In this document: positions 100 through 5,271 of the stretch, piece after piece
Layout of the letters: each line of letters starts with the position of its first letter
Numbering within the stretch: the first letter of the stretch is position 1
Assembly: GCA_024223125.1 (NCBI GenBank)
Contig: JAAEOP010001048.1
Span: forward strand, 1 to 5,280
Direction: 5' to 3'
DNA from: Chloroflexota bacterium
GTDB taxonomy: Bacteria; Chloroflexota; Anaerolineae; Promineifilales; Promineifilaceae
Length of the DNA: 5,280 bases
Notes under the pieces: model-generated
Told to the model about the DNA's origin: nothing
What the model saw: only the letters and a program-made list of their open reading frames with translations
The model's database searches: none
Translations under genes and position numbers: made by a program

Positions 100-492
100 G
101 TGCATGAAATACCAGAGCAGGTAAGGGTGGAATACGTGCTCAGATTTAACACCCTAGTGCGCGACCCCGCAGGCAAATACGAATCGACAGCTTTTCTCTG
201 CACTGACCAAGAAGCCAGCCCTATTCAAATTCTGGATTGGTTTATTCTACGCTGGAATCTGGAAGTCACATTTCAGGAGGCACGCGCGTTACTTGGCGTG
301 GAAACTCAGCGTCAATGGTCAGACAAGGCGATAGCACGTACAACGCCTGCATTGATGGGCTTGTTTTCACTCATTGTACTCTTTGCCTATTACTTGACAC
401 GAGACAAAACATTTCCGATCCGCACTTCGGCCTGGTACAAGAAGAAAGAGCCAACATTTGTGTTGACCATATCTGCATTTGCCGACCGATAA
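100..492 (+). pseudogene. C-terminal remnant of a DDE transposase (IS4/IS701-like)
   Basis: The open stretch encodes about 130 residues matching the C-terminal third of DDE transposases of the IS4/IS701 type. What I recognise is a VRDPAGKYES strand, then LCTD, then the RWNLEVTFQEAR segment, which should carry the catalytic glutamate, then GVETQRQWSDKAIARTTP and a hydrophobic helix. The catalytic aspartates would lie upstream and are absent. The same frame continues to position 1 with weakly transposase-like residues but is broken by TAA at 94-96, so GTG at 100 is only the first possible start after that stop, not a genuine one. At the 3' end the frame closes soon after KKEPTF, earlier than usual; dropping one A in CGATAACCTG (486-495) would give RYLL, closer to what I expect there, so a one-base frameshift is likely. 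The family is fairly sure, the exact IS family less so. It appears inactive. Confidence 0.75.
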
Positions 493-1761: not shown

Positions 1762-1870
1762 ATTTATTTGTAACTGTACAGGTGCGACGCACTTTTCCCA
1801 GAGTAATGTCAATACCGCTGCTCTTTGCAAGTGCATCGCACCTCTGGAAGCTGAATAGTTACATTTATTT
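1762..1870. mobile_element. 93-bp MITE-like element, copy 1 (1770-1862), with 8-bp target duplications
   Basis: The element proper is 1770-1862, starting GTAACT and ending AGTTAC. Inside each end lies a second inverted segment: GGTGCGACGCACTT on the left and AAGTGCATCGCACC on the right, one mismatch apart. The right arm has about nine extra bases between the outer and inner segments. The direct repeat ATTTATTT flanks it exactly on both sides (1762-1769 and 1863-1870), the mark of an 8-bp target-site duplication. It has no coding capacity. Copy 2 (5047-5139) has the same length and orientation with two substitutions. GTAA ends and 8-bp duplications are the known hallmarks of IS66-family elements, so an IS66-type transposase acting in trans is the likely mover (inference). 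It sits between permease 2 and the binding-protein gene, so the operon mRNA would carry its hairpin. Confidence 0.85.
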
Positions 1871-1930: not shown

Positions 1931-1985
1931 GTGGGTGGTGGTTAGAGTTGTTTGTACCATCCACCATCCACTAACCACCATCCAC
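1931..1985. repeat. Inverted repeat able to form a 15-bp hairpin
   Basis: GTGGGTGGTGGTTAG (1931-1945) is matched at 14 of 15 positions by the reverse complement of CTAACCACCATCCAC (1971-1985), with a 25-base loop. The right arm lies within the heptamer array that ends at the permease 2 stop codon. Read on the minus strand it immediately follows that gene, so it could stabilise the upstream mRNA or pause transcription. It has no U tract, so a classical terminator is unlikely. Confidence 0.5.
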
Positions 1986-4700: not shown

Positions 4701-4720
4701 GTCTGGCAAGGGCGTGAAGC

Positions 4721-4755
4721 GTGTTCCGTGTTCCGTGTTCCGTGTTCCGTATTCG
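4721..4755. repeat. Heptamer tandem array (GTGTTCC type)
   Basis: Four exact copies of GTGTTCC (4721-4748) are followed by a degenerate fifth, GTATTCG (4749-4755), 35 bases in strict phase. It lies in the non-coding stretch upstream of the operon promoter. The rest of 4756-4856 shows no gene or structure that I can support. Confidence 0.85.
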
Positions 4756-4976: not shown

Positions 4977-5271
4977 GATTGTGTGAAAAACACGGCGAAA
5001 GCTGCTTTCACGATATCGTCCATCTGGTACTGAATGTTTTTCCCTGGTAACTGTACAGGTGCGACGCACTTTTCCCAGAGTAATGTCAATGCCGCTGCTC
5101 TTTGCAAGTGCGTCGCACCTCTGGAAGCTGAATAGTTACTTTCCCTGTTCGTTTATCTGGCAGGGAAGCACTCAGTTTTGTCAATCGGGTGATACTTTGG
5201 TCAACGATAGTGGGTCGTTTGTTCTTTTTAGTTTTCTGTTTTATTTTCATAAGCAACGACCATACCATCAA
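4973..5271 (-). pseudogene. N-terminal transposase fragment, interrupted by MITE copy 2 and truncated
   Basis: From ATG 5250 (alternatives TTG 5271 or ATG 5268) the minus strand encodes a lysine-rich start, then RLTKLSASLPDKRTGK, before entering the 93-bp element. Removing the element plus one 8-bp target duplicate (101 bases) joins this in frame to NIQYQMDDIVKAAFAVFFTQSP (codons 5038 to 4973). The joined protein matches the opening of a DDE transposase group known from cyanobacteria and Chloroflexota (usually filed under ISNCY), with LPDxRxGKNxQY then AFxVFFTQSPSFL. After FFTQSP the expected continuation is lost and the sequence becomes the PD40-like fragment. The gene is therefore dead twice over: truncated and interrupted. 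The family is recalled from memory; the frame restoration is read directly from the sequence. Confidence 0.65.
5039..5147. mobile_element. 93-bp MITE-like element, copy 2 (5047-5139), with 8-bp target duplications
   Basis: Same length and orientation as copy 1 (1770-1862), differing at two bases only (an A/G in the centre and an A/G in the right inner arm). Here the inner inverted segments GGTGCGACGCACTT and AAGTGCGTCGCACC are perfectly complementary. The direct repeat TTTCCCTG flanks it exactly (5039-5046 and 5140-5147). The duplicated target differs from that of copy 1, so the two arose by separate insertions. It has landed inside a transposase coding sequence, breaking its frame. Confidence 0.88.

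What the first reader, a model, noticed from the sequence alone, without database searches (positions are those of the whole stretch)
1762..1870. A 93-bp non-autonomous mobile element, seen twice with perfect 8-bp target duplications
Seen: two 93-bp copies (1770-1862 and 5047-5139) with two differences, ends GTAACT/AGTTAC, nested inner inverted repeats, and flanking direct repeats ATTTATTT and TTTCCCTG respectively. Known: IS66-family elements have GTAA ends and make 8-bp duplications. Inferred: a MITE mobilised by an IS66-type transposase elsewhere in the genome, recently active given the near-identity and intact duplications. The inner arm GTGCGACGCAC is itself nearly palindromic, which could serve transposase binding or RNA folding.
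Basis: partly seen in the sequence, partly recalled or inferred. Interest (0 to 1): 0.78.

Follow-up and report, generated by a model that had tools for sequence, protein, structure and literature searches.

The report
Jumping mini-element wrapped around REP-like hairpin
A 93-base piece of DNA in a Chloroflexota bacterium carries the end sequences of one family of jumping genes but encloses a hairpin repeat that in related bacteria also lies beside a different kind of jumping-gene enzyme, so two mobile-DNA systems may have been combined in one tiny element.

Summary
In detail: two 93-bp copies (1770-1862, 5047-5139; 2 differences) with ends GTAACT/AGTTAC and perfect 8-bp duplications.

The IS66 reading is supported in relatives: 5 of 16 IS66-family loci examined have an 8-bp duplication and ends GTAACYRYWCAG like the MITE's. 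Of 16 two-ended miniatures in the window, G005 and G356, 11 have perfect 8-bp duplications; swapped flanks gave 0 of 506. The window's own genome is not held.

The inner arms AGGTGCGACGCACTT/AAGTGCGTCGCACCT are a separate, abundant, mostly extragenic hairpin family. They flank a RAYT gene in G003, and a same-core version flanks one in G001. They also occur in a second MITE family with other ends and a ~9-bp duplication. No GTAG guide was seen, so the hairpin is REPIN-like, not a canonical REP.

Best reading: an IS66-type MITE formed around a REPIN-like hairpin. New variant of a known kind; moderate interest.

The parts
1762..1769 (.). left 8-bp target duplication ATTTATTT, copy 1
1770..1862 (+). 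93-bp MITE copy 1; lies 28 bp upstream of the likely ATG (1741) of the NMT1-type binding-protein gene (- strand), inside an ABC operon
1770..1781 (+). IS66-type left end GTAACTGTACAG
1780..1794 (+). left hairpin arm AGGTGCGACGCACTT (REP-like 15-mer); overlaps the last 2 bases of the end
1795..1828 (+). 34-nt loop (34/35 nt is the commonest long-loop length in G001/G002: 25 of 55)
1829..1843 (-). right hairpin arm, one change (AAGTGCATCGCACCT)
1851..1862 (-). IS66-type right end CTGAATAGTTAC
1863..1870 (.). right 8-bp target duplication ATTTATTT
5039..5046 (.). left 8-bp target duplication TTTCCCTG, copy 2
5047..5139 (+). 93-bp MITE copy 2, upstream of the ABC operon, same orientation as copy 1
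5057..5071 (+). left hairpin arm, copy 2
5106..5120 (-). right hairpin arm, copy 2, perfect complement of the left
5128..5139 (-). IS66-type right end, copy 2
5140..5147 (.). right 8-bp target duplication TTTCCCTG

Best explanation
The 93-bp element is a non-autonomous IS66-type MITE that formed around a REPIN-like hairpin. Shown: the outer 12-bp ends match those of IS66-family elements in relatives, and related two-ended miniatures carry 8-bp target duplications. Shown: the inner 15-bp inverted arms are a separate repeat family in these genomes, found next to RAYT genes in two of them. Inferred: an IS66-type TnpC supplied in trans pairs the two GTAAC ends and inserts the element with an 8-bp stagger, carrying the hairpin as cargo. 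Inferred: the hairpin family was first spread, or is still recognised, by a RAYT. Inferred: the hairpin came to lie between IS66-type ends by capture, perhaps helped by the likeness of its first bases (AGGTGCGA) to the inner part of some IS66 ends (AGGTGTGA).
For: Ends and duplications: (23 of 132 pairs have end-like sequence on both sides; 11 of the 23 have a perfect 8-bp duplication, all 11 among the 16 from window/G005/G356; 0 of 506 swapped-flank controls). IS66 partners: (G001 L016, 1558 bp, 476-aa DDE_Tnp_IS66 ORF, ends GTAACCGTTCAG, duplication GATTTTCG; G001 L013; G331 L241; G306 L249; G333 L245). Arms as an independent family: hits on the two strands, up to 1 mismatch: G001 67/70, G002 56/56, G005 55/54; reversed-pattern control 0-1; 47 and 51 inverted pairs in the stretches read; 27 of 98 pair centres inside an ORF of 150 aa or more, against 0.86-0.87 of random positions. 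RAYT link. Same arms in a MITE with other ends. Arms kept at 17 orthologous sites while loops diverge: (491/517 columns against 105/189; nearest flanks 1105/1411). Pairs whose two arms bear the same change, so that pairing is kept: 17 counted by hand in the capped lists.
Against: A GTAG-type guide beside the arms was looked for and not seen. Arms (up to 3 mismatches) were near only 4 of 30 RAYT loci, one of them diverged and two being G003 contigs that are probably one locus, 2 of 30, the same G003 places. G005 and G356 have many arms but no PF01797 match (MAG-type genomes, so absence is weak). No IS66 locus examined carries the arms (0 of 7, 0 of 10). None of the 7 two-ended G001/G002 elements has a duplication. 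The likeness of AGGTGCGA to IS66 ends is weak (random 6-mers reach it in 5%). The arm-conservation test used arms with at most 2 changes, which inflates arm identity. In the fetched set, 0 of 132 pairs had the same change in both arms.
Confidence: 0.63

Rival explanations
1. A plain IS66-type MITE. The inner arms are the inner part of its own terminal repeats, and the solo hairpins in relatives are old copies whose outer ends have decayed.
For: IS66 ends such as GTAACTATACAGGTGTGAGT (G331 L241) share 16 of 20 bases with the MITE left end. In G001/G002, flanks with end-like sequence (at least 9 of 12) are more frequent than in shuffles: long loops 12/54 and 16/56, short loops 8/40 and 7/46, against about 5%.
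Against: The arms flank RAYT genes, sit in a MITE family with unrelated ends, and are absent from the 17 IS66 loci examined. 153 of 196 G001/G002 flanks show no end-like sequence.
Confidence: 0.24
2. A host-recruited regulatory or mRNA-stabilising hairpin, with mobility now incidental.
For: Arms conserved at 17 orthologous sites while loops diverge. Copy 1 sits 28 bp upstream of a binding-protein ATG inside an operon, and its - strand folds better than 199 of 200 shuffles.
Against: Duplications show recent mobility of the window copies. Around copy 1 no terminator-like site was found, and the one promoter-like hit equals the shuffled mean of 0.9. 0 of 12 distinct upstream regions in relatives have the hairpin.
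Confidence: 0.08
3. A REPIN moved by a RAYT alone, the GTAAC ends and duplications being coincidental.
For: RAYT-flanking hairpins with the same arms.
Against: Perfect 8-bp duplications at the GTAAC boundary in 11 of 23 elements against 0 of 506 controls.
Confidence: 0.02

Closest known systems
IS66 family (DDE transposase TnpC) and MITEs derived from it
   Same: GTAA ends and 8-bp repeats (PMC11946415, passage seen, gives 20-30 bp repeats starting GTAAGCG and 8-bp DRs); end sequence shared with IS66 elements of relatives; one end type of the G005 MITE is GTAAGCG
   Different: no coding capacity; only about 12 bp of shared end sequence; filled almost entirely by a hairpin pair that the IS66 elements examined do not carry
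REPINs (REP doublets forming hairpins) with RAYT / TnpA_REP, PMC3116915 (passages)
   Same: two conserved short repeats in inverted orientation, spacer variable in sequence and restricted in length, mostly extragenic, same arms beside a RAYT gene
   Different: GTAG-type guide not seen; 43 of 98 loops only 3-4 nt; here enclosed by DDE-type ends with duplications
TIRtrons/TIRYTs (RAYT-like genes flanked by repeats other than GTAG REPs), PMC3733652 (passages)
   Same: RAYT-like gene flanked by repeats that lack GTAG and are dispersed in the genome
   Different: here the dispersed repeat is also cargo of IS66-type MITEs and of a second MITE family

Membership tests
IS66-type MITE | ends beginning GTAA, inverted | tested here: met
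   both window copies match the end consensus 12/12 at both ends
IS66-type MITE | 8-bp target duplication | tested here: met
   both window copies; 11 of 23 two-ended elements perfect, 0 of 506 controls
IS66-type MITE | autonomous IS66 element with matching ends in the same genome | not testable with these tools
   own genome not held
IS66-type MITE | autonomous IS66 element with matching ends in relatives | tested here: met
   5 duplication-flanked elements among 16 distinct IS66 loci examined, in 4 genomes; one transposase is split over two frames (L013)
IS66-type MITE | no transposase gene of its own | tested here: met
   93 bp long; ORFs crossing it look incidental
IS66-type MITE | mobilised in trans by TnpC | not testable with these tools
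   needs an assay
REPIN/REP | conserved short repeats as inverted doublets with variable spacer | tested here: met
   98 pairs and 23 unpaired arms in the G001 and G002 stretches read; sixteen 34-nt loops, two of them the window's, 0.30 mean identity against 0.25 shuffled
REPIN/REP | extragenic location | tested here: met
   27 of 98 centres in an ORF of at least 150 aa against 0.86-0.87 of random positions
REPIN/REP | association with a RAYT gene | tested here: inconclusive
   met in G003 (two contigs, probably one locus) and, by the same core, at one G001 locus; 4 of 30 loci, one diverged; G005 and G356 have no PF01797 match
canonical GTAG REP | GT[AG]G guide next to the hairpin foot | tested here: not met
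   no such columns beside the arms in 86 short-loop and 110 long-loop flanks of G001/G002
REPIN/REP | excision/transposition intermediate | not testable with these tools
   needs read data

The most novel reading that the evidence does not exclude
The hairpin arms are a portable module. They began as the single-stranded-DNA substrate of a RAYT and were then captured independently by at least two unrelated DDE-type MITEs (IS66-type with 8-bp duplication, and a GGGTGTG-ended type with ~9-bp duplication). The repeat could thereby go on spreading in lineages where no RAYT was found (G005, G356).
Probability: 0.38. Interest if true: 0.72.

Novelty: new variant of a known kind. Interest (0 to 1): 0.5.

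Why it matters
REPINs and IS-derived MITEs are usually treated as separate classes of bacterial miniature mobile DNA, one tied to HUH enzymes and the other to DDE enzymes. Here one 93-bp unit has the ends of one and a body like the other, and the body recurs in a second MITE with different ends. If that holds, it gives a concrete route by which a REP-like family can outlive its RAYT, and a natural test of whether the arms help transposition, host tolerance or neither.

Tried and rejected
Rfam scan of the window at gathering thresholds: 0 hits. Plasmids: 2 records with a 29-bp partial match, E 0.7. Phages: 7 Nodularia phage records with a ~32-bp partial match, E 0.8. Viral contigs: 0 exact matches to a 29-base pattern.

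Extra pairing inside the long loops: loop ends look complementary by column composition, but Watson-Crick counts do not exceed shuffled partners, so it was rejected. Matched changes in the two arms: 0 of the 132 fetched pairs, yet 17 pairs counted by hand in the capped place lists have them (for example G307 C71, G310 C24, G355 C54); some may be copies of one another, so I use this only as mild support for pairing. Larger transposase-bearing elements ending in the arms (G005 single-arm loci L048, L054, L055): the listed ORFs showed no evident transposase next to the arm, judged by eye without a family search. Empty site of a solo hairpin (G001 L185 against G002 L160): the spacer aligns too poorly to define the inserted unit. 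Terminator or promoter role near copy 1: nothing above chance. Composite-transposon reading of the two window copies: unlikely, because each has its own duplication.

Mended on re-checking: the upstream regions are 12 distinct ones (13 loci, but L237 and L240 give the same stretch); the two G003 RAYT contigs share flanks and are probably one locus. For the latter I lowered the main confidence from 0.66 to 0.63 and the novel case from 0.40 to 0.38, and raised the plain-IS66 rival from 0.22 to 0.24.

Full report
Observation. The two copies, their ends and both duplications are as described. They differ at 2 of 93 positions. The outer terminal repeat is about 12 bp (GTAACTGTACAG / GTAACTATTCAG). 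The inner 15-bp arms begin 10 bp from the left end and 19 bp from the right end. Copy 1 lies inside an ABC-transporter operon (NMT1-type binding protein, two permeases, ATPase), 28 bp upstream of the binding protein's likely ATG. Copy 2 lies upstream of the operon. The copies point the same way and each has its own duplication, which argues against a composite transposon.

Placing the window. No whole genome is held for it. The binding protein finds orthologues (E up to 1e-60) in 12 of 52 genomes of G002's family, the best at 84-85% amino-acid identity. That family also contains G001 (PABI01, isolate NAT123) and G003 (JAACJX01); G002 is CAJQMR01; record titles name them Anaerolineae/Ardenticatenia MAGs. 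The 13 loci give 12 distinct upstream regions in 12 genomes, and 0 of 12 have the hairpin in the 420 nt read before a motif in the mature protein, a stretch that includes the start of the gene. Copy 1 is therefore specific to the window's lineage. Most spacers are too diverged for a base-by-base empty site, and in some genomes a different gene lies upstream.

IS66 ends. PF03050 was searched in 25 genomes (5, 20); 12 have a match. I scanned the flanks of the IS66 loci for an 8-bp repeat with inverted ends, without assuming an end sequence (exact repeats, up to 1 mismatch). Of 16 distinct loci (7, two being one element; 10), 5 have a perfect 8-bp duplication with GTAAC ends: G001 L013 and L016, G331 L241, G306 L249, G333 L245. 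The scans also returned hits without GTAAC ends in L246 and L247, and lower-ranked ones in L016 and L245, which I take as chance. L016 has a 476-aa ORF matching DDE_Tnp_IS66, while L013 is split over two frames. The L016 ends GTAACCGTTCAG equal one end of a G005 MITE (L053), and G309 L244 (no duplication found) has GTAAGCGTTCAG, equal to its other end. IS66 ends starting GTAAGCG and 8-bp repeats are described in a passage of PMC11946415.

More copies. The pattern GTAACTN{3,6}AGGTGCGACGCACTT hit 10 stretches in 5 Chloroflexota MAGs. Because it demanded the end sequence, later counts use arm pairs regardless of ends. Among 132 pairs, 23 have end-like sequence (at least 9 of 12) on both sides; 11 have a perfect 8-bp duplication and 13 at least 7 of 8. 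Swapping flanks between elements gave 0 perfect and 1 of at least 7 in 506. All 13 come from the 16 elements of the window, G005 and G356; the 7 from G001/G002 have none and are old or chance. The 14 G005 and G356 elements are 87-150 bp, and in 13 of 14 one arm is 10 bp and the other 17 bp from the end, an asymmetry like the window's 10/19.

The inner arms are another repeat. The 15-mer occurs (up to 1 mismatch) 67+70 times in G001, 56+56 in G002, 10+9 in G003, 1+0 in G004 and 55+54 in G005, against 0-1 for the pattern read backwards. It is patchy: 6 of 301 genomes sampled from the phylum, G005 included (exact); 33 of 52 in G002's family and 9 of 11 in G005's family (up to 1 mismatch). Several of those have only 1-2 hits, no more than the reversed control reaches in some genomes. 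In the stretches I fetched there are 47 inverted pairs and 15 unpaired arms in G001, 51 pairs and 8 unpaired arms in G002: 43 of 98 pairs have 3-4 nt loops and 55 have 21-37 nt, 34/35 the commonest (25 of 55). The place lists stopped at 100 of 112 and 100 of 137, arms needed at most 2 changes, and pairs at stretch ends and duplicates were dropped, so this census is incomplete. G005 was sampled through 20 chosen stretches and two further loci, G355/G356 through chosen, mostly long-spaced, pairs. Pair centres lie in an ORF of 150 aa or more in 27 of 98 cases, against 0.86-0.87 of random positions in the same stretches. Loops of different sites are nearly unrelated (sixteen 34-nt loops, two being the window's, 0.30 mean identity, shuffled 0.25).

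RAYT. In G003 a 195-aa Y1 protein (PF01797; NCBIfam REP_Tyr_transpos 69 bits, below its cut-off of 80; PDB 4er8 TnpArep, E 1.4e-4) has these hairpins on both sides in two contigs. The contigs encode the same protein (100%) and share flanks, so this is probably one locus. A G001 homologue (59% identical) is flanked by hairpins with the same GTGCGACGCAC core in the reverse nesting order. The five other homologues inspected for repeats have other flanking palindromes (ATTTCCCCGGAAACTC in two, GTGCCAGGCAC in one, AACCTCCCGGAGGTT or a close variant in two), as expected of RAYT/REP pairs. Against this: arms lie near only 4 of the 30 loci (one diverged) and 2 of the 30 (the same G003 places); G005 and G356 have no PF01797 match; and the GTAG-type guide of canonical REPs (PMC6006769, passages) is not seen beside the arms. 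I therefore call the hairpins REPIN-like and not canonical REPs.

A second carrier. In G005, two elements of 130-131 bp have the same arms inside ends GGGTGTGTTTCA / TGAAACACACCC, with flanks matching 9 of 9 (L065) and 8 of 9 (L064) bases (which looked only at fetched stretches). I do not know which transposase family owns these ends. This is the main reason to treat the arms as a module and not as IS66 terminal repeat.

Arm conservation. At 17 sites shared by G001 and G002 the arms match at 491 of 517 aligned columns, the loops at 105 of 189, the nearest 40 nt of flank at 1105 of 1411 and the next 60 nt at 1661 of 2108. Arms were chosen with at most 2 changes, so their figure is biased upward. 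A look that did not require arms, but only inside fetched DNA (itself chosen around arms), found both flanks of 17 of 51 G002 sites and 18 of 47 G001 sites in the other genome. Both arms were seen at 16 of 17 and 16 of 18; the two one-arm cases are pairs for which one search shows both arms, and one G001 site has none in G002. Selection on, or concerted copying of, the arms is likely but not proved. That loops are less alike than flanks is unexplained.

How it probably works. The GTAAC ends, and the duplications that start exactly at them, indicate movement by an IS66-type TnpC in trans (inferred). The hairpin body is cargo from a RAYT-linked repeat family (inferred). One IS66 end variant continues AGGTGTGA where the MITE arm reads AGGTGCGA, which could have eased the joining of hairpin and ends, but random 6-mers reach that likeness in 5% of cases. 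Copy 1 would place a hairpin in the spacer before the binding-protein gene; any effect on expression is untested.

Print. Searches for the core letters, REPIN+RAYT+MITE, IS66+MITE+TSD, Chloroflexi with REP/RAYT, REPIN+insertion sequence+composite, IS66 end features, MITE+REP+chimeric, Chloroflexi+MITE and IS66+MITE showed no listing that describes such a composite. These cover only the held open-licence library, and I saw only listings, abstract starts and passages.

Noticed in passing
G005 L065:3736-3865 and L064:1721-1851: A second MITE family (ends GGGTGTGTTTCA/TGAAACACACCC, about 9-bp duplication) carrying the same hairpin arms; its transposase family was not identified.
   Followed up: partly
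window 100-492 (+): C-terminal fragment of an IS701/IS4-type transposase (NF049999 E 2.6e-24, below cut-off).
   Followed up: partly
window 1931-1985: Another inverted repeat (GTGGGTGGTGGTTAG / CTAACCACCATCCAC) in the same spacer as copy 1.
   Followed up: no
window 4713-4747: Short direct repeats of CGTGTTC units upstream of the ABC operon (family D5).
   Followed up: no
RAYT loci L102, L103, L106, L110, L125: RAYT homologues in the same bacterial family are flanked by different palindromes, some shared between genomes; a possible set for studying RAYT/REP matching.
   Followed up: partly
G001 contig C8, 32901-37675 (L178): A cluster of hairpins in the reverse nesting order around and near the RAYT gene.
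   Followed up: no
G001/G002 orthologous sites: Loops at shared sites are less alike than the surrounding flanks (105/189 against 1105/1411); unexplained.
   Followed up: partly
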